Of a stretch of 39,236 nucleotides of DNA, positions 645 through 38,456 are shown one piece after another. Numbering within the stretch: the first letter of the stretch is position 1; each line of letters starts with the position of its first letter. The notes below the pieces were generated by a model. That model saw only the letters and a program-made list of their open reading frames with translations, ran no database searches and was not told the DNA's origin. The stretch is taken from contig CATKHK010000160.1 in assembly GCA_949751835.1 (NCBI GenBank), positions 1 to 39,236 of the forward strand, read 5' to 3'. The position numbers and the translations under genes are program-made. The stretch is from Blepharisma japonicum. Taxonomy: Eukaryota > Ciliophora > Heterotrichea > Heterotrichida > Blepharismidae.

Positions 645-1710
645 ATGAGTACCATAAGATGCTATCGGCCAAAATGTGACCGAGAAGTTGAATTTTTATG
701 CAACTGCACTTCCCCAGATACTTATTCTTGCAAGAAGCACTGTGGAAGCCATTGCAGATCTAGTAAAGGACCTCATAATTTCATCTCATTATTTTATGAG
801 CCTGTTGAAGGCACAAAAGAAGCGATCCTTAGCTTTCTTGCAGAAGAAAAGTCAAAAATTGAAGAAATAAAAAAAAATATAATTACTTCTTTCTCAAACT
901 CTTTGCCGTCATCAAAATATCCTTGCACAAGTTTTAAAAGAAATTGACTCTTATTCTACACAAATTGGCAATTATATTGAAAAAATCTGAATAACACAAA
1001 GTCTAACAATATTGGAGAAAGATCCAGCTTTAAATTTGTTAGCTTTACAATCAAATGAAGCTATCGATAAAGTTAGAGCAATTTTTATAGAAAGATCAAA
1101 TAATAACATTAAGCTATTTTGCAATATAGAAAATCAAGTAGATTCAATTATCAAGAGCTTTTATGAAGAAAAGTCCAAATTTATTTCTGATGAAAAGCAG
1201 TGTGAATTAAAAAGCAATCTTAAAAAAGAAATGAATTTTAAGGATGAAGGGGAAAATTTACAGCCAGCACTAGACAAGTATAAAGAAGCTATCAGAATTG
1301 ATCCAAATAATGCTGATGCATACAATGGCCTAGGACTTATCTTTGAAAATGAAAAGAGATATGAAGAAGCAGTAAAACATTACAACGATGCAATTAGAAT
1401 CAATCCAAATTATGCAATTTATTATACAAATAAAGGAGATGCTCTATTTGAGTTAGGCAGAAGAGAAGAAGCTATGGAATGCTATAAAGAAGCTATCAGA
1501 ATTGATCCAAATAATGCACCTGCATACAATAACATAGGAATTATCTTGAAAAATAAAAAGAGATATGAAGAAGCAGTAAAACATTTTAACGATGCAATTA
1601 GAATCGATCCAAATGATGCAATTTATTATAGAAATAAAGGAAGTGCTCTTAGAGAGTTAGGCAGAAGAGAAGAAGCTATGGAATGCTTTAACAGAACTAA
1701 AAAATTATAA
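645..1710 (+). CDS. B-box-like zinc finger / TPR protein with one internal frame break
   Basis: The start ATG at 645 opens a short Cys/His-rich module (C6, C11, C19, C21, C29, H32, C33, H36, C37), which resembles a B-box-like zinc finger. A charged helix follows (LAEEKSKIEEIKK). The frame then shifts by one base somewhere between 883 and 943, after which a second frame runs from SQTLCRHQNIL to the TAA at 1710. The C-terminal part has four clear 34-residue TPR repeats (motif YKEAIRIDPNNADAYNGLG and variants), so a protein-binding scaffold is likely. I found no 15-16 nt GT...AG intron that explains the shift, so it is an indel: sequencing error or early decay. The TPR part is repeated almost exactly at DNA level with a 204-bp period (two TPRs). 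Related B-box/kelch relics lie at 19750-21845 and 3246-3905. The partner protein cannot be told from the sequence. Confidence 0.8.
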
Positions 1711-10309: not shown

Positions 10310-13300
10310 ATGAATACTTTAGTTTTTTATTTATGCTTTTCTTTTCTTGCAAGGAGCCAGCTTATTGTCGACATTCTCTTCAGTTCCTTTACAAACCAAG
10401 GTTTCGCTCGAAATTTAACACTTTATCTCCAGCAAAGTTATCAAAATCAATTTGAATTTGACTTGGTCTACTATGATAATTTTTCGAGCTGCCAAGAGCT
10501 TAAAAATAGTCCAAATATAATTTTTGATGCAACTTTTAGTGCATCAATATCGGAATCTCTGAAAGAGTATGCTGAAGAAAACCATGCTATAATTGCTATT
10601 ATTAATAAACCCTTTAGCGGGCATTCAAATTGAGAATTCTTTACTCATAATACAATGGAAAGTCAAATTGAAGCCTTGTCAAGCATTATTACCTATTTAA
10701 ATTGGCAAACTTTTATTATAATTTCTGGTGAAGTTTTTGATGAATTTTTAAATACTTTTGAAAAAAATTGCCAATGATTTTATTTTCCGAATAGTAACGA
10801 TGAGAATTCTGCAGATTTATTTATAAGAAAGGTTATTAAGACTACTGGGATAAGAAATATTATCATATTAAATAAAGAGGAAAGCACAAATATACTTTTG
10901 AATAGCTTAGAATTGCATAAAGTGCTCACTAATGGAACTGGAGTTATTGTAGGGAGTGAAGGTTCGTGGGGTTTATATGAAAATGGAATTATTGCTTATG
11001 CAGAATCAGGTTTAGAAAACGCGGATAGCTATTTTAGTTATGAAGGTTTAGCGATTATAAAATTTTTAAATCTGGTACTTGAGTGTCCTTCTGCATATGA
11101 TCCTTTAGCGTTGCTAGAATTTCTAAATAAAAATACAGATAATCACCACCCGATTCCCAACTTTACCTTATTAAACACAAAAAATAGCCAAAAAATGATA
11201 GCCGGAAGTATTTTCAGTGGAAATTTGAGTATATCAAGTCCTCTGACTTTTCCAGGAAATTCTTCAATAATTCCAAACTCTCCGACTACAGATATCAATA
11301 TATGAATTGCAGATGGAACCACAAACCCAGGCACTGATCCAGACTTTGTAGCCACAAGTGTTATGGCAGGAGAATTTTATGCATTAGCCTATTGAAAAAA
11401 GATGCATGCTCTTGATGGCTTTGAAATTACAGTCACTGACACAGATTGTGGGGCAACCGTATTTGACGAAACTTATGCATATTACTGTTTTTCTAAACTA
11501 TTAGGAACTCCTGGTGTTGGCTATTTAACTTCTTTGTACCCATATATTTCTATTGGCTATGTTCTCACCTTGAGAGCTTTAAATTTTTCGATCCCAAACA
11601 TTTCTCCATATGCACCTTCCACCATTTCTCAAAACCAAACAAATTTTCCAGAATTCATGACAGTAATAAAAGATGAAAGATTCAATACCCAGGTTATATT
11701 GAATCTTGCGGCTGTTTTCGGATGAAAAAATTTTATTGTGACTTATGATGATAGCAATAAAGGGGTCTACGAATATTTTGCGGCAAAAATTGAACAGTTT
11801 AATATGAGGATTGAAAATGCTCCTATTTTTAGAAAAATTGATACTTATTATACCAAAGCTGATTTTCCTAAATGGAAATGGTGATTTGAAGGTATAATGA
11901 AAACAAAATCACGAACTTCGGTTCACTTTTTAACTCCCCCTCATGGGTTTTATGTAGCTGAAACATTCTATGATCTTGGAGTCAGAAGAGGTGATGTATT
12001 TTTTTTATATAATGCAAAAATTCGATATACATTTGACTGGGAAACTGACCCAGTTCAGAGGTGGAAACTTATTGACTTATTATATAGATCGCTTATTATT
12101 ACTCAAACAGAATGAATTGGCGACTATGGAAAAATGTTGAGGAGTGGGTTTGAAAAAGTATATGGGAACCAGACAGATTTTTGCTGTTTGGCATTCGATG
12201 CTGCAATGCTTCTTCTTAATGGGATAGAATATACAATAAATATGGGTGAAAATTTTAAAAACAGTCAAATAATGAATGCAAATCTTAGAAAACAAAAATT
12301 TACTGGATGCTCTGGGACTATATCAATTGAGCCAGGAGGAAATCAAAGAAGTGTGCCAACGATAGGGATTTATAGCTTAAAATGGGATGAGAAAATTCAG
12401 GATTTTTACGAAGAATTTGTAGGAATATATGACATTAGCAGTGTTCAATTATTTACTTTCTACAGTCCAATTGTGTGATATGACAATACCACAAACGTGC
12501 CTATAGATACCAGAATTTTCGAAAATGGTTGCCCATTTCCAGCTAAGAAAATTTTTCGCTCAGAGAAAGGCGCTGGGGTGCTATATGGAATAGCAATCAC
12601 ATTGATAATTATTTTTACTATTGAAGCTTTTTTAATTTGAAAAAACATCTGAAAGAAAATAGTGATTCAAAAATTAAAAATTGCTGTTCATGCACATTTT
12701 GAAGATTATATTTTGATGGGAGTTATTGCTATAGACTTTTTCCAATTTATTTCTCAAGGGCCAGATATAAGTAAATTACATGGATGACTATCGCTATTGT
12801 GCACTTATACAATGGCTAATTTTGATTCTACAGTTGCAGGGAATATTTACTGAGATTACATTTATACAGCTATAGGAATTGCATGCTATTCAATTATTTC
12901 TAGTTTTATATTATTTTATAGACGAATCAAACTTATAGGAATAATGCTGAGACATGCTATAAGCCTTGCTTTACTTTTATTGCCTATCATTGGAAATATA
13001 ATATTTGTTCCTATGGTTTCTGTGCTTTTAAGCATTTTTCAATGTGACCAAGGGATTAGCTCAAAAATTGAAGATTCTTTTATAAGGCATGACTGCACTG
13101 TTAATTGCTGGGATAATCAATATCTCATATGGGGAATTATATCAATAATTTCTTTAGTAACTTATATCCCTTTAGCAGTTTATTTAAGATATTATTATGA
13201 AATTGTTAACGACCACATTAACATCAGAACAAATCTGATTTTTATTATAGAAAAAGCAATCTGTCAATTAATTATTATTGTTATGAATCAAACAGTAAAA

Positions 13301-13774
13301 GTGTATAGTGAATCTTTGCATGGGCTTCTTTGTTCTATTCTTTTTTTCGTAATAATTTTGCTGTGCTTTAAGCAAAGCCCTTATAATTACAACAGAATGA
13401 ATCTTTGGGTTATTGTTTCCTATCTGGCTGTTTTATGAAGCTTTATTTTATCAAGTATTTATTGGCTCAAGGAATTTGATTTCCCAATGCTTTGGCTTGC
13501 TTTTCAATATTGAGGATGGCTTATTTTAATAGCAGCTGGTATTGCTATTCAGTGCAAATGGTACCCAAGCTTATTAAATACTGATAAAGTTTTAGACATC
13601 GCAATTTTTTTCAAATTTGAAATAGGAAGCAAAATAACAGCTGCCGATATAAATAGAATGAAAAAAGAAATGAATGAATCTAGATATTCTACCAAAACAA
13701 AAATATTAAACATAAATTCTACTAGAATCATCCCAACTATTAACGAAAATATGATATCAGAAAATGATCTTTAG
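10310..13774 (+). CDS. Receptor 1: tandem Venus-flytrap (periplasmic-binding-like) domains plus polytopic membrane region
   Basis: A 1154-residue protein when TGA is Trp (about 14 TGAs and a similar number of TGG); stop TAG at 13772-13774. An N-terminal signal peptide (hydrophobic residues 1-16) precedes a first type-1 periplasmic-binding/ANF-receptor-like domain (about 18-340; its LNWQTFIIIS strand is typical). A second domain of the same kind follows (about 345-730: VFGWKNFIVTYDD, KFTGCSGTISIEPGG, several Cys). A Cys-containing linker NGCPFP leads to about nine hydrophobic segments (752-1087), including LLLLPIIGNIIFVPM and LLSIFQC with a Cys/His loop (RHDCTVNC). The C-terminal tail is hydrophilic and presumably cytoplasmic. 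This fits a cell-surface ligand receptor, related in its outer half to class C GPCR and natriuretic-peptide receptors. The ligand is unknown. There are no introns. Paralogs lie at 15488 and 23897. Confidence 0.93.
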
Positions 13775-14340
13775 AATTAATTTTTAAGAATATTTTATAT
13801 TTAAAAAATCTAAAGAAAATATTAAATATATAGATTATTGATTGAAGAGCGTATATCTCTTAAAATCCCATCAAATTAAGAAATCATACAAAAAATTTAG
13901 TAATTTTGTCACAAAACAAACCTATTAATCTTTTAGCTTTGAGTGCTGCTTCTTTTGGAATTATTTAATTTTTATTTCATTAAATTGAATAAATCATCTA
14001 CTATGGGTGCATTATAGTCATTCGCCTTTTCAGATTATACTGTTACAGCAAGCATATTAATTGTAATTGAGTATTTCTTTAAATTCTTTGCCTGATATAA
14101 AAAAATAAGAGGAAAATGGCTCTTTTTAATTGGTGATATTTTTATTATGGAATTTGACATTCTAATTCAAAATTCTTAATTTAAGAGTTTAAGCTGAAAT
14201 TAAAGTCTAATATGTCAAAATAGACTGAAAATTATTATTATCTGTATTTAAGCAATATTATTTAGGTATGATATTATATTAATTAACTAACAACATCATA
14301 TAATTTTTCTTCATGGCTATCATATTTTAATAATCAAGTT
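13775..14340. other. AT-rich intergenic, nothing recognised
   Basis: Spacer downstream of receptor 1. No coding-like stretch, repeat or RNA gene could be supported. Confidence 0.45.
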
Positions 14341-14344
14341 AATT

Positions 14345-15000
14345 GCTATATAATATAAGCTCCTTCAAAATTTTGGATTTCGCCTTAAATTTAACTATTC
14401 TACTTTAGAAAACCTTCCAAGATCGATATGAAATAAACTGGCTTATTTTGATAATTCTTTAGATTGGAAAATGCTACAAAATGAGCAATCTAAGTCTAAT
14501 ATTACTTTAGCTCTTCGTTATCACAGTCATTTAGAAGTAAGCTAAATAAAATCCTTGAACAATTGCCCATATAGAAAATCAAGCTATTGAATATTTTGAT
14601 CGAGAATTTAAAAAGGAGTGAATGATTAATTTATGTTTCTCATTTATCGGCACATCTTATTGGGGATATTGATGCATTACTATAACAATTTCTTCTTTTT
14701 GAATTTTAAAGCATTTATTTTATTATTAAGCTAGATAAATTAGGCAATATGATTGAAGAATGCTAGAACTGTTACAAGACTATTACTGCCTATTATTGAA
14801 AATATCGCTTTCATGCATACAGTTTCGATATTTTAAGGTATTTTATTAAGACAAGCTCCATTTTTGATATTTCAGAATCAGGAAATTTATATTTAGAAGA
14901 TAGCCTGCAAGCATCTTAGCCTTTCTTTTCAATTTAAAACTAGATGGCTTAGAATTAAAAGAAAATTTGCACCCTAATTTTTTGAAACATTTATTTTTGA
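14345..15000 (+). pseudogene. Deleted relic of the tandem-flytrap receptor family
   Basis: Starts with a stretch aligned to the mature N-terminus of receptor 1: FALNLTILL-stop-KTFQDRYE against FARNLTLYL-Q-QSYQNQFE, where a TAG replaces the CAG Gln codon. After more degenerate N-terminal sequence it jumps to the membrane region: SYWGYWCITITISSFWILK (compare NIYWDYIYTAIGIACYS), then RLLLPIIENIAFMHTVSIF (compare LLLLPIIGNIIFVPMVSVL), then a trace of the ISSKIEDSF loop. Both flytrap domains are largely deleted, and stops and frame changes are scattered. It lies between the two intact paralogs in the same orientation, as expected of a dead tandem copy. Confidence 0.75.
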
Positions 15001-15487
15001 ATTATTATGGAAACTCTAATAATTTGAATTTAAATTCCTAAATAAAAAAATCAAAATTCTTCAAAAAACAAATACTTTGGATAAAAATAGTTGTAAAATT
15101 TTATTAAAAATCGAATTTATAATAGTTTCAAATAATTTGCTCACAATATTTCCAATCTCTATATTGTTTTAAATACTCTTAATTTTAAATGCTGACTAAT
15201 AAGTATAAAACCCTACGTGGATATTACGAATAGGAATATATTAAAAATTAAATTGAATTTCATACCAACAATTTTACTTTGTTGCCTGCCAAATTTATCT
15301 GGTCAAATTTTAATTGGGACGCTAAAAGGCTTCGACTATCCACTCAGCTTCAAATAAAGTTTAATATGAAATAGCTCAAATAATTTATTTAATAAAGAAA
15401 ACTCAATTAAATCTTGCATCAATTAAAAATACAGCAGATAACTATTGATATTTTCCTTAAAATATAGATTTAATATAAAAGTCAACT
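15001..15487. other. AT-rich intergenic, nothing firm
   Basis: Spacer before receptor 2. A short protein-like stretch near 15270-15340 may be a further scrap of receptor sequence but cannot be aligned with confidence. Confidence 0.35.
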
Positions 15488-18400
15488 ATGAGTATTTTGT
15501 TAACTTGACTCTGTATTGTAATCCTTTCTAATAGCCAACTCATTGTCGACATCCTATATAGTTCTTACACAAATAAAGAACTTGCTTTGAATATTATTTC
15601 TTTGTTGCAAAATAATTTTCAGGGCCAATTTGAATTTTACCTGAGCTATTTAGAGGACTTTGAAGATGTTCTGCAGGCCACAGATTTCCCAGATATAATT
15701 TTAGATCTAACCTTTAGCTATTCATTATCAGAATCCATCAAAGAGCTTGCTGAAGAAAAGCATTTTATAATCGCTTCTATCAATAGATCATATGGAACTT
15801 ACTCCAATTGAGAGTTTTTTATGCATAACTCATGGGAAAATCAACTTGAGTCTTTATCAAGTATTATATCATATTTCAATTGAGAAACTTTTATTGTAAT
15901 TTCTGATGAATTGCATGACAAGGACAGTGAATTTGCTACCTATTTTTCAGGCAAAAATTACCAGTGGTATTTTTTTGCAAATAATAACGATAAAAATTCA
16001 TCTGATTTATTTATAGGAAAAGCAATTCAAGCCAGTGGAATAAAAAATCTTGTGCTATTAAATAGGGGGGAAAGCACTGAATTGCTGCTACAAAGTTTAG
16101 CAGAGCAAAGTTTACTTACCCTTGGAACTGGAGTTATTGTAGGAAACGAAGGCGCGTGGGGTTTATATGGGAATGGGGTTATTGCTTACGCAGAATCAGG
16201 TTTAGAAAGTGCTGATACCTATTACGCTTATGAAGGTTTAGCATTTATAAAATTTCTAAATATGATTATAAATTTTTCTCCAAAGCCAAACGCTTTTGAT
16301 TTACTTGAATTCTTGGATACAAAAACAGCTAATCATCATCCGATCTCCAATTTTACTATTCTTAATACAGTAAACAATATAAAAACTGTAGCAGGAAATA
16401 TTTTTAATGGAAATTTGGCAATAATAAATTCTCTGATTTATCCTGGAAATTCTTTAAGAATTCCAAACTCCCCAACGACTGCTGTTAATATATGAATCGC
16501 AAGTGGAATGACAAATTGGATGTCTACTCCTGATATTGTAGTGCGAGAACTAGCTGTTGCAGAAATGTTTGCATTGGACTATTGGAAACGCATACATGCT
16601 TTAGATGGCTTTGAGATCACAGTAACAAATACCGATTGTGGAGCATCTGAATATAACGCTACCTATGGATATTTTTGCTTTTATAAATTACTCGCTACTC
16701 CTGGTGTTGGCTATTTAACATCCCCATATCCATACATAGTCCTTGCGTATATCTATACATTGAGAAGTTTAAATGTCTCAATCCCCCAGATTTCTCAATA
16801 TGCGCCTTTTGCCGGCTTAGAAAATCAAACAAATTTCCCAGAGTTCATGAGAGTGGCTAGAAGTGACAAATACAATATACAAGTTATATTTAATCTTTGT
16901 GTAATTTTTAACTGAAAAAATATTTTAGTTTTTTATGACGAGAGCAGTTATGATAACTATCAGTATTTTGTTGCAATGGCCAAACAATTTAATGTGAAAA
17001 TTGTAAATAGTCCAAAATTAAGATTGATTGATACTTACTACACACTAGATAAGTACCAGGAATGAAAATGATGGTTTGAAGGCAACACAGAGTTAAAGGC
17101 TAGACTCATTGTACCTTTATTGATTCCTCCTTATGCATTCTATGTAGCTGAAAGTTTTTATGATACTGGTATGAGAAGAGGCGATGCTATTGTGCTCTCT
17201 AATGCTCATATTGCCTATGCTTTGGAATGATTAAATGATAATGTCCAAAATGAAAAAATAGCAGAAATTTTTGATGGAGCCGTCATTGCTACACAGGCTG
17301 AGTGGATTGGAGAATATGGAGAAATGCTAAAAAAAGAATTCAATGAACATTACTCTATATCCAACGATTTTCGTTGCTTAGCATTTGATTCTGCAATGCT
17401 TCTTTTGAATGGAATAAAATTTACTATACAGAAAGGGGAGAATACCAAAAATTATTATTCAATGAACAGCAACCTTAGAAAGCAAAGGTTTACAGGGTGT
17501 TCTGGAACAGTGTCAATTGAGCAAGGAAGCAACCAAAGAAGCTTACCTACAATTGGAATTTACAACATAAGACTCGATAAAGCTACTCAAAGATTATATG
17601 AACTCCTTGTAGGATTATATGATCCTGGTAGTACTACTCTAATAACTTTATTTAAGGAGATTATCTGATTTGATACTACTACTGTAGTGCCGACTGACTT
17701 TATAATATATGAAAATGGTTGTCCTTTTCCAAAAAAACGAATTTCCCACTCAGAAAAAGGCTCTGCGGTGTTTTATGGAATTTCAGCAGCTTTTATAGTC
17801 ATCACAATTGTGTTTTGTTTATGAATCTGGACAAAATGATGGCAAAATATAAAAATTGAAAAATTAATAAATCCCGCACCTGCCCAGTTTGAAGATTATA
17901 TTGTAATGGCAGTAGTGGCGATAGATTTGTTTCAGTTCGTTAGTCAAGGACCGGACATTGGCTGACTATTTTTTTGGTTATCTCGTATATGCTCCTATTC
18001 AATGACTAATTTTGATTATTCTGTTGGTAAAAATGACTATTGGATTTACTTGTATACTGCTATGATAATTTCTTGCTATTGAATTTTTTCAGCTTGTGTG
18101 TTGATTTTTAAGTTAAATAAGCTTAATGGTTGGCTATTGAAGTATGTTAGAATTTTTGCTATGTTTTTATTGCCTGTAATCGGAAATATCGTATTTGTGC
18201 CTATGATTTTAGTTCTTTTAAGTATTTTCCAATGCGATGAAGGAATTAGTAATAGCATATCTGACTCTTTTATAAGACATGATTGCACCACTTATTGCTG
18301 AAATCATAAATATATATTATGAGCATTTTTTTCTTTAATTTCGTTGATCACATATATACCTCTCTCTATCTATTTTAGATACCATTATGAAAACACAAAT

Positions 18401-18952
18401 GATCACATCAATATTCGAACGAAACCAATTTTTATTTTACAAAAATCAGTTTTGCAGGTAAGTATTGTTGTTATGAGCCAGACCATAAAAATCTACAGTC
18501 AATCCTTACATGGTCTTTGCTGCAGCATACTTTTACTTATATTTATTTTATTATGCTTAAAAGAAAACCCTTATAATTATAGTCGTGTTAGTTTTTGGGC
18601 AATTACTTCATATTTTGGAGTTTTATGGAATTTTATTCTATCTTCAATTTATTGGCTTACTAAATTTGAGTCTCAAGAATTATGGCTTAGTCTTCAAATA
18701 TCAATTTGGGTTGCCTTAGGAATATCTGGTGTTTTGATACAGTGGAAATTTATTCCAAGTTTGCTTTTAACAGTGAAGCCGCCAGATATCGCAATTTTTT
18801 TTAGATTTTCATTAGGAGACAAGGTTTCAGCTGCAGAAATTAATAAACTCAAAAAAGAAATTGCCAAAAACAGCGACAATGTTGAATCAAAATTGTCAAA
18901 ATTTAACAATCAAGCCTACTTTTCGATTGAAAAGGATCTAATTTCAGAATAA
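15488..18952 (+). CDS. Receptor 2: tandem Venus-flytrap domains plus polytopic membrane region
   Basis: A paralog of receptor 1 with exactly the same length (1154 codons) and co-linear motifs. The start at 15488 gives MSILLTW-LCIVILSNSQL, a signal peptide containing a TGA Trp; it then matches receptor 1 at SQLIVDILYSSYTN. There are about 15 in-frame TGAs, and the stop is TAA at 18950-18952. The first flytrap has FNW-ETFIVIS; the second has IFNW-KNILVFYDE and RFTGCSGTVSIEQGS. The linker NGCPFPKKR leads to about nine hydrophobic segments with FLLPVIGNIVFVPM, LLSIFQC and RHDCTTYC. The first 100 residues and several ligand-side loops differ more from receptor 1 than the membrane core does, which suggests different ligands. 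No frame break was seen. A surface receptor is the best inference; the ligand and downstream partner are unknown. Confidence 0.93.
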
Positions 18953-19077
18953 AATCCAACTTTTAGTAATAAATTTATTAATTTATAATTTATTTATTTT
19001 TGATTGCTTACTTTATTTATATATTAAAGCTATAATATATCACCCAAAACAGAAAATCTTTATCAATCATTATTTTC

Positions 19078-19340
19078 AGAAAATCAATGTGCAGTATCTT
19101 AACCTTGAGACCAAAATTGAAAGATATAATTTCTGTAGCTCTTATTAAAATAGATAATTAAATTTGGTCTGCTGAAGCTCCAGGCGATGTTTGGATTGAT
19201 AATCAGTATGCAAGCTATATGACTCTCTAAACTGAAATAGAATTCAATGTACAATCATCGAATTAATATCTATGAGTCGGCAAATCATATTTCTGAATGA
19301 AGATAAACTTCACTATATAGTAGTTCATAGGAGGCTGTTA
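19078..19340 (+). pseudogene. Unrecognised coding-like segment with many TAA/TAG
   Basis: One frame reads like protein from ATG 19088: SILTLRPKLKDIISVALIKI, then IWSAEAPGDVWIDNQYASYM, then TEIEFNVQSSN, then YLW-VGKSYFW-MK with Trp by TGA. At least six TAA/TAG codons interrupt it, mostly where Gln would fit. I do not recognise it. It may be a decayed gene; because any frame is open when all stops are ignored, the support is only the protein-like composition. Confidence 0.3.
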
Positions 19341-19749
19341 ATTTCGGACGAAAGAATCAGCCAGAATGCAGAATATGCAGATTATCTACCTATTTAATTA
19401 TAATGTAGCTCATAACTTCTAATTAAAGCATTGCATAAAGATAATCTATAAAGGCAAAAAAATTGTGCAAAAATGCTGAAACAGCCATTACCTCTTTTCT
19501 TTTTTTTAAGATGCAGTAAAGTGGCCGAATTCTAATGCAATTTAGAGAAAGAATTACCATTCTTATTTTTGGCTATAGGATAGTGTATTATTAAAGCTTA
19601 ATGATTTATTTTTAGACAGTTGCTACCTGAGTTGTTTTTTTGAAGTAAGGCCAAATTTCCAAAGTCTATTATTTCCTATTGGATTTCAGCTTGAAATATT
19701 GTTTTCAGCACTCTCGAAAATATTTGCCCCTTTTTAAAATAAATAAATA

Positions 19750-21845
19750 TAAACTTGTTATAAGAATCGAATATCTAAAAAGTGTATTGCATGCGCAATG
19801 AAAACTTATATCTTGGGGAGGTAAGGCCAAACTTTCTCATACATCTCACGTAAAATCATATCTTTCAGACAGTTTATTATCTCCTCCTATCAGATAGATA
19901 AAATTATTATAAAATATTGGATCAGCATGGTTATTCACTTTTGAGTTTTTCAGCTTTGTAAAATTTTTATACTTATCAACTGTAAATACAAGGCCTGAAC
20001 TAGAGCCATAATTACAACAATAAAAATAAGTTTTATTAGGAAGAATGCAACTTCTAGCAGACGCGTGAATTGATTCTTGAGTTGGGAGAGTTACAGTTGA
20101 AGAAATTTGGACGTTTTCTAAATTTATATACTTTTTTTGCGCATTTGCTTTTTAAAGCGAAGATTTGAAATAGACAATGAGGAATATTTCCAATTCATGA
20201 CTATATAATAAAACGAAAAGCAAAATGCTGATTTCCTTAATTCTCAGGTTACTAAATTTAAATCTATTAAGAGCCGATAAGTGCATATAAACATCCTTTG
20301 CAATTATTCCCTTAAGTTACCTTAAGATGGAGTTTATCATTATAAAAAGCAAATTGGAAAATTTAAATAGCAAATTGTTGGTTAAGACAAGACAATCAAT
20401 AATTCTTGAGGTGCTATTACTGCTATTGCAGTTTAAGATAAAATCTTTGGCAGAAATTTTACTTTGCTTGATTCAAATTAGAATGGAGTCGAGTCCAGTT
20501 CATCATGGAGGATAAATGCTAATTGGAAATTTTAAAATAGCAAAATGCAGATTATCGACAACTTTAGCTTCTAAAACTGCACCTATCCAAAGCAAGATAA
20601 AATTTCTTGGAAATTTGACTTTTCTTAAATTTTAATATCAAATTTTACCAGCAAACTTATATAGCAGTTGTTATACCTCAATAGTATCAAAAGTCATTAT
20701 AGCCAGCTTCTTGTATATCTAATGAGTATTTCAAAGATAAAGTTATTATCGCATTTTAGCTCATTTTCAAAAATCTGCTGCATTTATGATCTGCAAGAAG
20801 AGCTGCTTTGATGCTTATTAAGAATAGGCTTAAATATCAGTTTTTGCTAAGTTCCATAGTACTCTATTTTAATTGAAATGCCAGCACATTTAGATTTGCT
20901 AAAAAGGAATAACACCCCAATCTCAAAAAAGTGTATACCTTTTCGGCCCTTAATAGGTTTAATTAATAAACTGAGCTTCTTGTTTCATATAAGCAATTAT
21001 GCTTTTGATATAGGTTCGTCCCTCTATTCAGCTCTCTTCTCTTTAAAAGTAAAGGCACAAAAAAGGCATAGTAGCAAAAGTTAAAGAATTATGTCTAAAA
21101 AATGATAGTTCATTTGATTCAATTTCATCTTCAATATTGGCAAAAGAAATCTTAAAAGGGATTTTGTAAATGTTTTTAATTGCTTCATTTATTTCCTTGT
21201 AATCTAATGTTCATCTATTTATATCCCACAAAAACATATTGTGTTGAATATATGAAGCTTTTAATTTTAAAGCATTTTCCATATCATCTTCAGTATTAAT
21301 GTTAAGAATTCTTCTATACTAAGCAAAATCTCAATTATTTTATTGCATCTCATTTCTGCTTCATTGATTGATCAATATATTTTGCAAATTCGCTTTTATG
21401 ATATATTAAATATTTTATTCAAAGCACTTAGTACCAGCATTGTATTGGTAAAATAAATAGGCAACAATAATTTTTTAGATAATTTCATTTGCACTAGCAA
21501 TCGCTTCAATTCTATGCTTTTTAATATAATGATGTGGGAATTTTTATACTTCTCATCAACAAATTTAACCAATTTGGTAAATTCACAAAACACCCATAGA
21601 AAGGTTTCTTATGAAAGTGTTTGAATTTCTATATCTTTTTTGAATATATTTAACTTATTGATAACAGGTTGCTTAATTTCTTCTTCTGGTCTAAAATAAA
21701 GCTTTAAACAGTTGTGACCTTTAGATATTGGCTTTACTACATGCTCAGCAGTGTGCTCTTTGCAAAGAAAGATGATTCCTTCGCATTCACACTTTGCAAA
21801 GAGCTTGCTTTTACAGCCATCTATAGAGCATTTGTGATTAAGCAT
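19750..21845 (-). pseudogene. Decayed B-box-like / kelch gene
   Basis: The start at 21845 gives MLNHKCSIDGCKSKLFAKCE, then FLCKEHTAEH, a Cys/His module like that of the gene at 645. A helical region follows (FRPEEEIKQPVINKLNIFKK), then a TAA at about 21612, where the gene at 645 appears to have CAA, then FVDEKYKNSHIIILKSIELK. Further on, open pieces are NINTEDDMENALKLKASYIQ and IKNIYKIPFKISFANIEDEI. The 3' part is a kelch propeller piece: SARSCILPNKTYFYCCNYGS, IYLIGGDNKLSERYDFTW-DVW (Trp by TGA), LALPPQDISFHC. Frame changes and stops throughout show decay. The domain order (zinc finger, helical linker, kelch) defines the family. Confidence 0.65.
20336..20660. repeat. Degenerate direct duplication inside the B-box/kelch relic
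   Basis: The stretch 'aattggaaaatttaaatagc' near 20351 recurs as 'aattggaaattttaaaatag' near 20521, and 'agataaaatctttggcag' near 20437 recurs in altered form near 20599. The spacing of about 165-170 bp is kept, so this is a diverged two-copy tandem repeat. No function is visible. Confidence 0.35.
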
Positions 21846-21896
21846 ATTTATAGATTTATAATAGAGTATTAATTTAAGGTCTATTCTAAAAGTCAA

Positions 21897-23290
21897 AAAT
21901 CCAGGCTACTCATAGCTTATAACGAGCCATACAAATTTTATTGAATTTTAATATTTAGAATGGAGTCTCTTTAGCAATTGACAGAGAATTACTAATAGCC
22001 CATAATGCTGAAAATTTAATTAATTTATTTATTCCTTTTATTTGCTTTAATCGCTTATTGTATTTCCTAGATATTAATAAAACATAAAATCTTGGGATAA
22101 ATTTATAATATTTTAGACCCACAGAATGCTAGAAGTGGGCTACTTGGGCGTAGGCAGCCTTCATCTTGCAGTCATGAGAAAGCTAATAAAAAATTTGCAT
22201 TGATTATTTTAAGATTATATATGATAAGTTGAATAAAGCTTAACTATAAGCACCGATAGCAATCAGCTAGCCTTTATGTTAAATATCTTTCATAAATGTT
22301 GGCAGATCGGATTACACTTTAGTAGGAACACTGTTTAATGTTTAAAAAGAATATAATGACTTAAATCCTGATATTTATTCTGTAAATTGAATCTTCAACA
22401 TAGGCATAGTCCTATAAAATTTTATCTTAAATCTATTATTTCTTTAAATATCCTTTATTTTTATAGCCGCTGACTTTAATAATAATTAATAGCATAATAA
22501 ATTTATAAAACCTAGATAGAGCAATTGGCTGTATCAATATTACTAGCATTTAATTGAAAACTGTGGAGTGTTTAAAGATAAGAGTTTTGTTATTAAAAAA
22601 TCTAATTCAATCTTTTTAAATATCAGAATATTTCCATTTTTGGCTAATAAAATTGCTTTAATAAATTCATGCAATCAACAGTTACTATCTTTATATTCTT
22701 ACCAGCTTTTTCTACATTTGAATTGCAATCCTATTATCAAGTATAAAATAAAAATCAAACCTTTATCATATTTTGCATTTATTTTAAAGGTCTACTCTAT
22801 AAGCCCTAGTGCAGCGCAAACGGAAGAAGACTTAGGAGAACTTATTGTATAAAAACCTGTGCTATGCTTTTAATTAATCACTAAGCCTAGCTTGTGACAT
22901 TTTGTTAATGCTTACCACCAAATCAGCAATCTTTTCTTGTTGATCAAGTCGATCAAAGAGTTTCTTGCTTCTTTATGGCACTAAAATGAAAAAGAAGAGG
23001 TGAAAGTGCTAAAAAATTCAGAAAAGTAATGTATCAATATGTATGCATTGCTCAACTTCTAAATGGCGAGCTTTTCTGTAATTGACAGAAGTTATAAATT
23101 TCAAGTGCTGCCTCTGTAGCAAAAAATACCAAGTTAATTTTATTTATGGCTCTATTCGTTATAAGATTAATTTTGCCTAATTTTTTCAAGAAGCCATCCT
23201 TAATGCCTTATCATTACAAATTTGCTATGATCTCTTAAACGAATAGGGTTGATAAATAATAGGCCAAAATTTAATTTTTGAAAAGCTTTT
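21897..23290. other. Degenerate AT-rich region with no supported gene
   Basis: Several short open stretches exist on both strands, including a 94-codon plus-strand frame at 22568-22852 and a stop-poor minus-strand stretch at 21960-22180. None shows a domain or convincing composition. I regard the region as relic or spacer sequence. Confidence 0.35.
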
Positions 23291-23299
23291 CATTCAAAA

Positions 23300-23480
23300 G
23301 ATTATATTTATCTCAAAAGCAGTTTTTATTACTTTGGAGGATCTATAGATTCTATTTAGATGAAAATAGATAAATTAAATCCACTCCACTGCCAAAAGCA
23401 ATTCATTTTGCCTAGGATAACTTTTAATGAAAAACTTTGATTATATTGATAATATTAGAACAATATTAACTCTTTCTAAT
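23300..23480 (+). pseudogene. Short kelch remnant
   Basis: The phrase YYFGGSIDSI, followed by KIDKLNP and a Leu-Pro-containing stretch, then ITFNEKL, matches the order of a kelch blade seen at 2821-2990 (YCFGG, then a Trp/Pro stretch, then IIFDGKIL). Stops and frame changes interrupt it. It is a scrap of the same propeller family. Confidence 0.4.
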
Positions 23481-23610
23481 ACTTTAAGAGTAAAAAGATT
23501 GTACTTGATTAAAAGCGATTATAAGTTAGGCAATGGAAATATTTATTAAATCAATAAATGTACAAAATTCATAATTTTTATTTATGTCCTTTCATAGGTT
23601 TCTATCCTTA

Positions 23611-23702
23611 TGCTGAGCTTTAATTGCATTATAATATTAATTATAAAATAAATTTTTGCTGAGATTTAATTTCATATAATATTAATTATAAAATCAATTT
23701 TA
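23611..23702. repeat. 46-bp direct tandem duplication
   Basis: Two adjacent copies, 23611-23656 and 23657-23702, both start 'tgctgag' and share 'atataatattaattataaaa' or a near-identical form. A few substitutions separate them. The repeat lies upstream of receptor 3. Confidence 0.75.
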
Positions 23703-23896
23703 ACTATGTAGGTACACCTGAAATTCGACTTTATTGAAGTTAAATTGAAAATTATTAAAAATAATTCAATAAAAAAATTAAAAGTAATCATACATTGTGA
23801 ATTATCAAAATTCTGATTTTCAAAATATTGGCTTTCTAAAAAAAAGCAATAAATAAAATAGACAGCCATAAAAGCTTAAGCAATATAATTTAATAC

Positions 23897-26800
23897 ATGC
23901 CAGCTCCCTATAATTATTTTTTTAAAAATTCTGATGAATATTCTTTGATAATATATATGCAACATAGCAACAAAAAACATAATGATCATTGCCTACGATT
24001 TTTTATGCTAATTTCTTTAGCTGTGATTGGGCTTTCAGTAGCATCTGAAGTTTTAGTTGTTTATTCAACCTCCTCACAAAGTATTATGCTAAACTTAATT
24101 GATGAAATCACAAATAGAACTACTCCATCCTCAATTGTAATTTCGCCAGTTAGCTTTCCCTTCCTTAAAGAAGAAATCTTAACAAAACCGAATATTTTAG
24201 CAATTTTCGACATCACAAACAATTTAAACTCACAGTACTCAATCTCAAGGCTTTGTGAGGAAAACCTTATTTTTCACTTCTTGGTTACTGGTAGTTTGCC
24301 TTACCATAGCAAGTGAACTTTTTCACTTGCAAGCTCAAAAAGCAGCTCAAACAAAGCTTTTACTACAACCTTAAGCTACTTTAATTGGACAGATGTGATA
24401 GCAATTAGCAGTATAGAAAGCTATTCAAATATTCATCCTATAGTTAGCAATTATTCTCAGAAAATAGAATTTTTTTCTGTTAGTTCAGGAATTTATATTC
24501 AAGAATTTGTGAGAAAAAATCTCATGAAATTCGGCTCATCATTATTTTATTTATTCACAGATAAAAATTGTTCTATTGAAATTCAGCAAACATTATTATC
24601 ATCAAAAATGATGGGCAGCGGAACTGGAATTTTGTTGATGGGTGAAAGTACTTATGAGCCAGTTGTTAATGGAGCTTTAGCTATTGTTGAAAAAGGCAAA
24701 GAAGAGGCAGATTCATATGAAAAATATTTATGAATAAAAATTTCAGAAATGATTTTTATACTAAGCAACGTATCTAGCCCAGATGAATTTTCAGCTACTT
24801 TATTAAAAAGATGCCCTGATCATTTTTGTGCAAATGGATTTTCTGTCATAAATTTTCAAGGAAATTTAAAAAAGGTTGTTGGGTCCATATTTGATGAAAA
24901 TTTTATATTAAATTCCCCTGTAGTTTTCCCAGGCAATAATATTGATATTCCAGCTTCACAAAAAAAAATTTTATATATCAGCGCAAATGATGGGATAACG
25001 AACCCTGGAGGTGATCCTTCAAAAATAATTCTTCTTTACAAAAGAGGTCTTACACTAGCACTAAATAATATTAACAATGGAACTGAAATTCTTCAAAATT
25101 TTCAGCTTAAACTCAATGATTTTGACTGCGGAGCAATATTATATAACGAAAGCTTTTTAAATAATTGCTTTCAACAAGGTAAGGAGAATTTAGGGTTAGC
25201 GCATATTGTGACACCAAATTATTTAGTTGCAGTAGGGGAAATGCTTGCAATAGCAAAATTAAATATAACGCTTCCTTTTGTGGAAGCTACGAATATTCAT
25301 GATGATCTCTCAAATATCACTAAATATCCATTCTTCACTCGAATCAGTTTGCCAAGCTCACTTACGCAACCACAAATCCCATTAATATTAAAAGCCATGG
25401 GCTGAACAAATATCGCAATTTTATATCAAAATGAGAGTGCAGGGATTTCATCTAATTATTATATTAGCCAAGTAGCAGCAAAGCAGAAAATAAAAATTGT
25501 GAATAATTTAAGAATAATTCCTGCACTTCTCACAAGAAGTCAGCTTATTAATTATAAAGACGTTTTCCAAGAAATTATTGATACAAATGTAAGAATGGTA
25601 GTACTTGCGTTAAATTCGCCTTTATTGGACTATGCTGCTGAGCTATTTTATGACTTAGGCATGAGAAGAGGCGATATCATTTTTTTCACAGTTCTCCCAG
25701 GATGGCTTTCAACAGTGGCAAATAAAGATGATTATACGTATAAAAGGATTGAAATTGCAGTGCCTATGATGACTTCGCTGCAGTCGATTTTTATAGGCAC
25801 CCTAGGCAAAAAGTCTATAATGATCTATATAAAAATTATGGAAACGTTCAACCTGCTTCATCATCTTGCTTATTTTATGATGCTGGGGTGTTAATAGGGA
25901 CAGCTTTAGATTGAACTATAAATAAGGGGAACGACATTAATGATCCGAATGTTCTTGAAGCTGCGATTAGAAATGTGAAATTTACTGGTTGCACAGGAAA
26001 AGTATATATCGTAAAAGGTAGCAATGATCCAAAAGTTTCAAGTTTTACAATCCAATCAAATTCTTATAATGCCTCAACAGGAATTGCAAGGATTTTTGAT
26101 ATAGGATATTTCGCACCTACATGATCTAAAATTTTAAGTATCGATACTCCTTTTATATATCCAGATGGCACCACCAATAAGCCTGGAGATTACCGAATTA
26201 CAAGAACAAACTGCCCATTTGATGATAAACTAAAGCAAACATTTTTTAAAGGACAAGCACTGAATTTTGGGATTTGTTTTTTTATTGCTTTAATTACAAT
26301 TATTATAACTTTTTTTATTTGAAAAAAGTGATGGAATCTAGATATCGGAGAACTTACAATTAAAGAAGAAATTTCAATTCCAGATATTGTTGTAGGGATT
26401 ACAATTGCAGTAGAATTTTTGTAGTCATTTCACAGGGCCCAAATACTAATTTTATGAATTCTTTTATTTCTATTATTGCAGATGCTGTGTCCTTGGATTT
26501 TATAAAAATTATGAAGCTCGAAAATGGTGTTTTTTGGTATTTGCTAACTGTGATTAATATTTTGTGTGGATTTTGGGTGATTTTTTGTCTTGAATTTTTT
26601 TTTCTCAATTAGGTGAAAGATTCAGCTATATTTGGGGATTTAGGATGTTCGGGCAATTAGCTGATTATTCTATGCCAATTTTGGGGAATTTATGCTTTAT
26701 CTCTTTTATATCAGTTTTATTAGAAGTTTATATATGTGACCATTCTATTGGAAAAAGTTTTACTGATATCTACCTCTCAATAGATTGTTATCAGTTCTGC

Positions 26801-27385
26801 TGGCAAGGAAATCACATTACTTATGTTGTTTTATCGTCGTTGTCACTAACCTTCTACATACCTCTTGCAGTGTTTTGCCGTCCTCTTTGGCAAGAATTTC
26901 AAGATTCATTGCATGTAAAATCATATCCTTTGTATTTAATGGTAAAAACAGCTATTCAAATAATTTTAATAGTTATCAACAAAACACTGAAAAAATCAAG
27001 TGCTACTGCTCATGGATTTTTATTCACTTTTTTAATAATACTTTATTTAGGCTTTTTCTTGAAATTTAGGGCTTTTAACTATGAAAGATTTAATTGGTGG
27101 CACAAACTAAGCCTAGTCGGAGTTGCCTGGTTTTCTTTGTTATCAACAATAAGTTTTTTGGTGGATGGAGCTGATTTTCTATTGATTTGAATAATTTTAG
27201 GTGGGTGGGGATTGATAGTCTTGATTGGATTTGGTGTCCAAAAGAAGTATCCAAGTTTACTATTTACGAAGAAAGGAAAAGATACTTCAACCTTATTCAA
27301 GTTTGCATTTACTTTTGGGGCAAGGTCTGGAGTGCACCATTTTAAAATTGAATCTCCCAAACTTGATTATATAAAAAAGTGCTAA
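23897..27385 (+). CDS. Receptor 3: divergent tandem-flytrap receptor with three frame breaks
   Basis: Same architecture as the receptors at 10310 and 15488. The longest start is 23897; ATG 24005 gives a cleaner signal peptide (MLISLAVIGLSVASEVLVVY). The first flytrap has YFNWTDVIAISS, the second AMGW-TNIAILYQNES and VKFTGCTGKVYIVKG. The linker has TNCPFDDK. Membrane segments include MPILGNLCFISFISVLLEVY and a Cys-rich loop (CYQFCWQGNH). The stop is TAA at 27383-27385. The frame shifts by -1 three times: in A5 (25808-25812), T5 (26416-26420) and T9 (26595-26603). The protein is well conserved on both sides of each. About 1127 residues would result from ATG 24005. Either these are missing bases in homopolymers (sequence error), or the gene has recently died, or frames are bypassed. 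A relic of this gene lies at 38625-39236. Confidence 0.85.
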
Positions 27386-38185: not shown

Positions 38186-38456
38186 ACTAATAAATGGGCA
38201 ACCATTTTCAAAAATTCTGGTATCTAAGGCACGTTTGTGGTATTGTCATATCACACAATTGGGCTGTAGAAAATAAATATACAAATTGCCCGAGGATGGC
38301 GCTATCTTTGCCATCCTCGGGCAATTTTTATAATTGAGCTCTGCTAATGTCATATATTCCTTGAATTTTCTCATCTCATCTTAAGCTGTAAATCCCTATC
38401 GTTGGAACACTTCTTTGATTTCCTCCTGGCTCAATTGATATAGTCCCAGCGCATAT
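38186..38456 (-). pseudogene. Inverted fragment of receptor 1
   Basis: The minus strand matches receptor 1 at about 12313-12537 with only a few substitutions, covering the end of the second flytrap and the linker (GTISIEPGGNQRSVPTIGIY, then IVW-YDNTTNVP, ENGCPF). Differences are a 21-nt in-frame deletion between short 'agga' repeats, a 1-nt loss near 38226 and a 51-bp palindromic insertion at 38280-38330. The high identity shows a recent copy. It abuts the truncated Cys-rich pseudogene. Confidence 0.9.
38280..38330. mobile_element. 51-bp GC-rich palindromic insertion at a TA
   Basis: Perfect 18-bp arms, 'aaattgcccgaggatggc' (38283-38300) and its reverse complement (38310-38327), enclose a 9-nt loop (38301-38309). 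With the TA on each side the inverted repeat reaches 23 bp with one mismatch. Comparison with receptor 1 gives the empty site: one TA there, TA on both sides here (38278-38279 and 38331-38332). So 51 bp plus a TA duplication were added. The core is far richer in GC than its surroundings. It has no coding capacity. Confidence 0.85.

What the first reader, a model, noticed from the sequence alone, without database searches (positions are those of the whole stretch)
38278..38332. 51-bp GC-rich perfect-arm palindrome inserted at a TA with TA duplication
The empty site is preserved in receptor 1, so the insertion is precisely defined: 18-bp perfect arms, 9-nt loop, TA on both sides. It is almost all terminal inverted repeat, and GC-rich in an AT-rich genome. 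It could be a minimal MITE, a miniature eliminated sequence recognised as a hairpin, or a structure-forming mobile unit.
Basis: seen in the sequence. Interest (0 to 1): 0.85.

Follow-up and report, generated by a model that had tools for sequence, protein, structure and literature searches.

The report
Tiny hairpin transposon kept in soma
A 51-base hairpin in a ciliate genome turns out to be one of about twenty closely similar copies of a very small jumping element that inserts at TA sites and, unlike most such DNA in ciliates, appears to stay in the working (somatic) genome, once even lying in frame inside a gene.

Summary
In detail: window 38278-38332 is a hairpin (18-bp perfect arms, 9-nt loop) at a TA; two paralogues keep a single TA there (12450-12451; C5). 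Four occupied/empty comparisons show 53-54 extra bases, three with a clean TA duplication. TGA=Trp and CCCTAACA telomeres point to a Blepharisma-type ciliate. I read it as a very short, non-autonomous TA-target (Tc1/mariner-like) MITE made almost only of its inverted repeats; no autonomous partner was found. Two things stand out. It is present in a somatic-type assembly (one copy about 80 bp from a telomere), and 53-54 bp is below the 65-bp first length peak reported for excised sequences of B. stoltei; escape from elimination by size is my inference. One copy adds 18 codons to an open 654-aa F-box/ankyrin frame whose paralogues lack them. Elimination and mobility were not tested directly. Palindromic IESs and MITEs are known in Blepharisma: a new variant of a known kind.

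The parts
38278..38332 (.). Whole unit: TA - 51-bp palindromic element - TA
   Evidence: Sequence and hairpin search; dispersed copies
38278..38279 (.). Left copy of the TA target-site duplication
   Evidence: Paralogues at 12450-12451 and in L081 have one TA
38331..38332 (.). Right copy of the TA target-site duplication
   Evidence: Paralogues at 12450-12451 and in L081 have one TA
38283..38300 (+). Left perfect arm, holding the family core CCGAGGATGGC
38301..38309 (+). 9-nt loop; on the minus strand it contains AAGATA, the loop of subfamily A. One core base is missing on one side in this copy, so the loop is 9 nt where the consensus has 6
   Evidence: Alignment of 19 copies
38310..38327 (-). 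Right perfect arm
12450..12451 (-). Empty target site (single TA) in the paralogous receptor gene copy
   Evidence: 12450-12530 (minus) matches the left flank at 95% and 12361-12402 (minus) the right flank at 91%; TA confirmed
38195..38450 (-). Degenerate copy of the receptor gene segment that carries the insertion (approximate limits)
   Evidence: Alignment; stops in all three minus frames around the element

Best explanation
A very short non-autonomous DNA transposon (MITE) that consists of little more than its two inverted repeats: TA / TA - C or G - 7 variable nt - core CCGAGGATGGCGC / 6-nt loop / mirror image / TA, 53-54 bp counting one TA. Shown: dispersed copies, near-constant length, single empty TA sites in paralogues, and presence in contigs of a telomere-bearing (somatic-type) assembly. 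Inferred: a germline transposase of a TA-target superfamily (Tc1/mariner-like), not identified here, moved it by cut and paste, reading the core and the TATA(C/G) ends. Also inferred: at 53-54 bp it is too short for the ciliate excisase to bring both ends together, so it stays in the macronucleus, is exposed to selection, and therefore remains at low copy number.
For: Nineteen two-armed copies aligned, window's included, one decayed copy (L076) and three truncated copies (L018, L023, L036). The gapped pattern with a TATA end finds 30 matches (15 loci) against 0 for the reversed control. Clean TA duplication, junctions read by eye, at three of four sites compared: window against 12450 and L081, L006 against L018, L007 against L047. 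The fourth, L032 against L055, shows a 54-bp difference with decayed ends. Length with both TAs is 55-56 in 18 of 19 copies; L026 was cut at 57 by the cutting rule. Telomere repeats CCCTAACA, and a telomere at the start of C99 about 80 bp from copy L040. First length peak of B. stoltei IESs at 65 bp (PMC9942856, part 1 of 3 of the Results).
Against: No autonomous partner was seen: no two opposed arms (up to 2 mismatches) lie at transposon-like spacing on one contig. None of six DDE_3 matches lies beside a pair of arms; one, on C22, has a single 2-mismatch arm-like match 1.1 kb away, in which I saw neither core nor hairpin (L080). The most conserved part is the inner core, not the ends, which is unusual for a transposase-read terminus. 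The length-escape step rests on a published distribution for B. stoltei, and I have not shown that this assembly is that species. No reads were available to show full somatic retention or new transposition.
Confidence: 0.8

Rival explanations
1. Retained or partly excised IESs: ordinary germline-limited palindromic IESs of the ciliate that are left in the assembly by inefficient excision or by germline DNA in the library.
For: Palindromic, and mostly TA-bound, IESs are reported for Blepharisma stoltei (PMC9942856, passages); excision is described there as a continuum. Five of 19 copies lie in small contigs of 21-60 kb (C143, C144, C160, C166, C190).
Against: Fourteen of 19 copies lie in contigs of 152-938 kb; one is next to a telomere; copy L032 lies in frame in an open 654-aa frame. 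The end of the Bogo TIR, a marker of germline-limited DNA in B. stoltei, gives 0 matches at up to 1 mismatch, though this would also be so in another species.
Confidence: 0.25
2. Hairpin-recognised mobile unit: the folded strand, not a double-stranded terminus, is what the mobilising enzyme reads (as for REP-type hairpins read by Y1 transposases in bacteria, recalled), so the outer arm may drift as long as it stays paired.
For: Pairing holds while sequence changes: 22 cells with changes on both sides, 0 of 500 shuffles as high; covariation score 0.147 against 0.086, 0 of 500. In 18 copies (L029 left out) the outer eight positions match 6.7 of 8 within copies and 5.1 of 8 between copies; 1 of 100000 permutations as high.
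Against: The changes sort mostly by subfamily, so there are few independent events: permuting inside loop subfamilies gives 2823 of 100000 as high. Two measures are unremarkable: pairs with changes on both sides (25 of 500) and further pair types (137 of 500). A TA duplication is typical of DDE cut-and-paste, not of Y1 enzymes (recalled).
Confidence: 0.15
3. A conserved functional hairpin (regulatory or RNA element) that has been copied with its surroundings rather than moved on its own.
For: Strong conservation of the 13-nt core; strong predicted fold of the window copy.
Against: Matches between copies mostly stop near the element's ends, except within the receptor-type family; four occupied/empty comparisons show insertion without flanks; no Rfam match in the window at gathering score; no constant position relative to open frames (no gene annotation was available).
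Confidence: 0.04
4. Local synthesis or repair artefact (snap-back) unique to this place.
For: Perfect inverted arms with a short loop can arise by template switching (recalled).
Against: Eighteen further two-armed copies and one decayed copy carry the same core.
Confidence: 0.01

Closest known systems
BogoMITE and palindromic IES repeat families of Blepharisma stoltei (rnd-1_family-87, -160; 'MITIES'), PMC9942856 (abstract, part of Results, passages)
   Same: Short, non-coding, inverted-repeat elements in a Blepharisma genome; about three quarters of IESs there are TA-bound; the palindromic families are named as possible MITE-derived IESs.
   Different: BogoMITE is about 389 bp with TAA/TTA duplication and a poly-C TIR, and its TIR end is absent from this assembly at up to 1 mismatch. 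Family-87 makes up part of the 153-bp class. Those are described as IESs; the present element is 53-54 bp and in a somatic-type assembly. Sequences of family-87 and -160 were not available to me.
Tc1/mariner-derived MITEs (general; recalled)
   Same: TA target-site duplication, inverted repeats, no coding capacity, dispersed copies.
   Different: Almost no internal sequence; the conserved core is inside the arm; no parent transposon found.
Rickettsia palindromic elements (PMC10969869, passages)
   Same: Palindromic mobile unit found in frame inside protein-coding genes.
   Different: About 150 bp, bacterial, 44 in-gene integrations reported in one species; here one in-frame copy of 54 bp in a eukaryote. 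No homology claimed.
Correia elements of Neisseria (PMC10969869, passages; TA-type ends recalled)
   Same: Small inverted-repeat elements with TA-type ends.
   Different: Longer (204 bp in the review), bacterial, with internal sequence.

Membership tests
MITE (miniature inverted-repeat transposable element) | Terminal inverted repeats | tested here: met
   25 pairs, 88.8% of 472 cells paired over 19 copies, the truncated arm of L029 included
MITE (miniature inverted-repeat transposable element) | Target-site duplication shown by empty sites | tested here: met
   TA at 3 of 4 sites compared, read by eye; the fourth shows the size difference but decayed ends
MITE (miniature inverted-repeat transposable element) | Short, no coding capacity, several dispersed copies | tested here: met
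   53-54 bp; 19 two-armed copies, 1 decayed, 3 truncated
MITE (miniature inverted-repeat transposable element) | Autonomous parent transposon sharing the ends (usual, not required) | tested here: not met
   None seen in this assembly: no long-spaced opposed arms, DDE_3 matches not flanked by them. A germline-limited parent would not be in a somatic assembly
Tc1/mariner superfamily (origin of the ends) | TA target-site duplication | tested here: met
Tc1/mariner superfamily (origin of the ends) | Mobilised by a DDE/D transposase of that superfamily | not testable with these tools
   Needs the germline genome and an assay
BogoMITE | TIR ending CTCCGTGAGCGAACAAAA and TAA/TTA duplication | tested here: not met
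   0 matches at up to 1 mismatch in the whole assembly; duplication here is TA
Internal eliminated sequence (IES) of ciliates | Removed from the macronucleus | tested here: inconclusive
   Present in a telomere-bearing assembly and next to a telomere, against removal; no reads to measure partial excision
Internal eliminated sequence (IES) of ciliates | Length within the common excised range (first peak 65 bp in B. stoltei) | tested here: not met
   53-54 bp; the range is from PMC9942856, for one species, and describes peaks, not an absolute limit

The most novel reading that the evidence does not exclude
A transposon that hides from programmed genome editing by being too small: by shrinking to its two inverted repeats (53-54 bp, about one helical turn below the first IES length peak) it can no longer be looped and cut by the ciliate excisase, so it survives in the somatic genome and has in one case become 18 codons of a gene. 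The copies would then mark the lower length limit of the excision machine.
Probability: 0.25. Interest if true: 0.78.

Novelty: new variant of a known kind. Interest (0 to 1): 0.55.

Why it matters
Ciliates normally delete mobile DNA from the somatic nucleus, which is thought to let it pile up harmlessly in the germline. A mobile element that stays in the soma at a size just under the first excised length peak offers a natural test of what the excisase needs (length, spacing, end sequence) and of the idea that excision shields insertions from selection: about two dozen copies found here against about 8,000 copies of the excised BogoMITE in B. stoltei (PMC9942856, abstract). It is also among the smallest units for which insertion at a duplicated target is documented by empty sites, as far as I know (recalled, no survey made), and one copy shows such a unit lying in an open reading frame.

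Tried and rejected
RNA element: no Rfam family at gathering score and no tRNA in the window. Bacterial or viral origin of the core: the exact core palindrome has 0 matches in genome contigs and viral contigs. A wider family sharing only the end TATA(C/G)AAATTGCC: 27 matches against 7 for the reversed control. Twelve belong to known copies; the other 15 were fetched and 0 of 15 shows the core or a hairpin of score 11 or more. Of five further places fetched, one is the decayed copy L076; L077 and L078 have a single arm-like stretch, L079 and L080 none. Other hairpin families: leaving this family aside, in the window, five 10-kb inner stretches and five 10-kb contig-start stretches nothing scored 13 or more, except a stretch of N in L056 that my script scored because it let N pair with N. 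The highest real ones elsewhere were 12. This sample is about 0.3% of the assembly. Intron: published Blepharisma introns are mostly 15-16 bp (PMC9942806, passage), so a spliced 54-nt unit is unlikely; not tested with transcripts.

Autonomous parent: not found. L035 and the third arm at C7:117190 (L033) were seen as possible fragments and not counted.

Full report
Check of the observation. The window holds one outstanding hairpin, at 38278-38332: 18-bp perfect arms, 9-nt loop, TA on both sides, 51 bp between the TAs. Its score is 19; the best in 60 Markov resamplings of the window is 12. GC is 44% against 30.6% for the window. The flanks match the paralogous receptor segment at 12450-12530 (95%) and 12361-12402 (91%) on the minus strand, where a single TA (12450-12451) stands in place of the insert. 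A second paralogue on C5 (81-82% over the flanks) also has a single TA and no hairpin (L081). Both junctions are read by eye; the alignment placed the first one badly. The insertion-bearing receptor copy is degenerate, with stops in all three minus frames near the element.

Copies. A search of the window's own assembly (45,185,585 bases, 224 contigs) with 201 bases around the element found hairpin matches in 11 further contigs. The pattern TTGCCCGAGGATGG with up to 2 mismatches gave 94 matches against 29 for the reversed control; many of the 2-mismatch hits are probably chance. A gapped two-arm pattern with a TATA end gave 30 matches, 15 loci, against 0 for the control. A query with copy L041 found copies of that subfamily again and led to one decayed copy at C77:187967. 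In all I aligned 19 two-armed copies, the window's included (L029 has lost the outer part of its right arm), plus one decayed (L076) and three truncated (L018, L023, L036). Counts are lower bounds, as the tool states.

Anatomy. Approximate consensus: TATA(C/G)AAATTGCCCGAGGATGGCGC-AAGATA-GCGCCATCCTCGGGCAATTT(G/C)TATA. With both TAs, 18 of 19 copies are 55-56 bases; L026 came out at 57 through the cutting rule. Three loops go with different outer arms: AAGATA with AAATTG; AATACA with ATTTTG (L012; L009 is mixed); GGAATG with ACTTTC, GCCTTC and others. The inner core is almost invariant; the outer arm varies but stays largely paired. Over 25 pairs and 472 cells, 88.8% are standard pairs, and the covariation score is 0.147 against 0.086 in shuffles (0 of 500 as high); sliding the partner by 1-3 columns drops pairing to 37-43%. 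Against this, 25 of 500 shuffles reach the 8 pairs with changes on both sides and 137 of 500 the number of further pair types, and permutation within loop subfamilies gives 2823 of 100000 (18 copies), so the signal comes from few ancestral changes.

Empty sites. L006 against L018 (84% over 1.6 kb): 54 extra bases in L006, GATG-ATA-GG in L018. L007 against L047, a TPR gene on the same contig: 54 extra bases at AAAGG(T/C)-TA-CTATCG, the junction read by eye; L007 also lacks two single bases that L047 has and looks like a pseudogene. L032 against L055: 54 bases, ends decayed. With the window (53 bases) this makes four sites, three with a clean TA duplication.

Copy in a reading frame. L032 (C7:16.5 kb) lies in a 654-aa stop-to-stop frame under TGA=Trp, with F-box-like and ankyrin matches over Pfam's cut-offs and an LRR match below it. 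In the protein search, eight paralogues match as two adjoining pieces, query residues 1-60/61 and about 77-146, so they lack the insert; of these L055 and L054 were aligned as DNA (the L054 alignment was printed in part). The insert adds 18 codons without breaking the frame. Whether the protein is made was not tested.

Host and compartment. TGA appears to be read as Trp: receptor frames stay open across it (sequence, by eye), and close protein matches carry in-frame TGA. The repeat (CCCTAACA)3 has 168 overlapping matches, control 0; the 100 listed lie on 13 contigs, at their ends where I know the length. The same repeat is given for Blepharisma stoltei in PMC9942806 (passages). The species is not established; the total size (45 Mb) differs from the 41 Mbp published for B. 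stoltei ATCC 30299. Copy L040 lies about 80 bp from a telomere at the start of C99. These facts place the copies in a somatic-type assembly. PMC9942856 (abstract, part 1 of 3 of the Results, and passages) reports about 40,000 IESs, the first length peak at 65 bp, a periodicity of 10-11 bp, palindromic IES families, and BogoMITE. The present unit, 53-54 bp, is below that peak. Escape from excision by size is my inference.

Mechanism. Shown: insertion at TA with duplication, dispersal, presence in the assembly. Inferred: a TA-target DDE transposase acting in the germline; a parent was not seen in this assembly. Exposed copies should be selected against in single-copy genes; the four sites I could compare are all in members of gene families, but a paralogue is needed for the comparison, so this is no test.

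Distribution. Of the 19 two-armed copies, 4 lie within 1 kb of a contig end (0.19 expected), 6 within 5 kb (0.94 expected) and 10 within 20 kb (3.8 expected). C99's end is telomeric; those of C68, C166 and the window are not; those of C32 and C190 were not read. Assembly breaks in duplicated regions could cause this excess.

Literature. Searches for Blepharisma with MITE, palindrom, genome assembly, and for palindromic or macronuclear MITEs of ciliates listed no paper whose title or abstract start describes a 54-bp somatic palindromic element, and I saw none in the passages of the two Blepharisma papers. The supplements of PMC9942856 were not open to me, so an earlier mention there cannot be excluded.

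Verdict. New variant of a known kind.

Noticed in passing
C99:115-170, C68:785, C166:812, window 38278 (G000): Two-armed copies are over-represented near contig ends: 4 of 19 within 1 kb (0.19 expected), 6 of 19 within 5 kb (0.94 expected). Of the four nearest ends only C99's is telomeric.
   Followed up: partly
L032:1493-1548 (C7:16.5 kb): A copy in frame inside a 654-aa F-box/ankyrin open frame, adding 18 codons that eight paralogues lack in the protein search, two of them aligned as DNA.
   Followed up: yes
L009 / C7:117190: A third partial arm (TTGGCCGAGGATGG) lies just outside a complete copy, and the two outer arms of that copy resemble different subfamilies; possible nested insertion or recombination.
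   Followed up: no
window 991-1710: TPR-repeat open frame with a 204-bp tandem repeat (2 copies, 89% matches).
   Followed up: no
window 10700-27200: Several related receptor-like open frames in a row; no Pfam match for the three segments tried.
   Followed up: no
L059:7653-7685 (C69): Unrelated 33-bp hairpin (48% GC, 11-bp perfect arms) in a telomere-bearing contig start.
   Followed up: no
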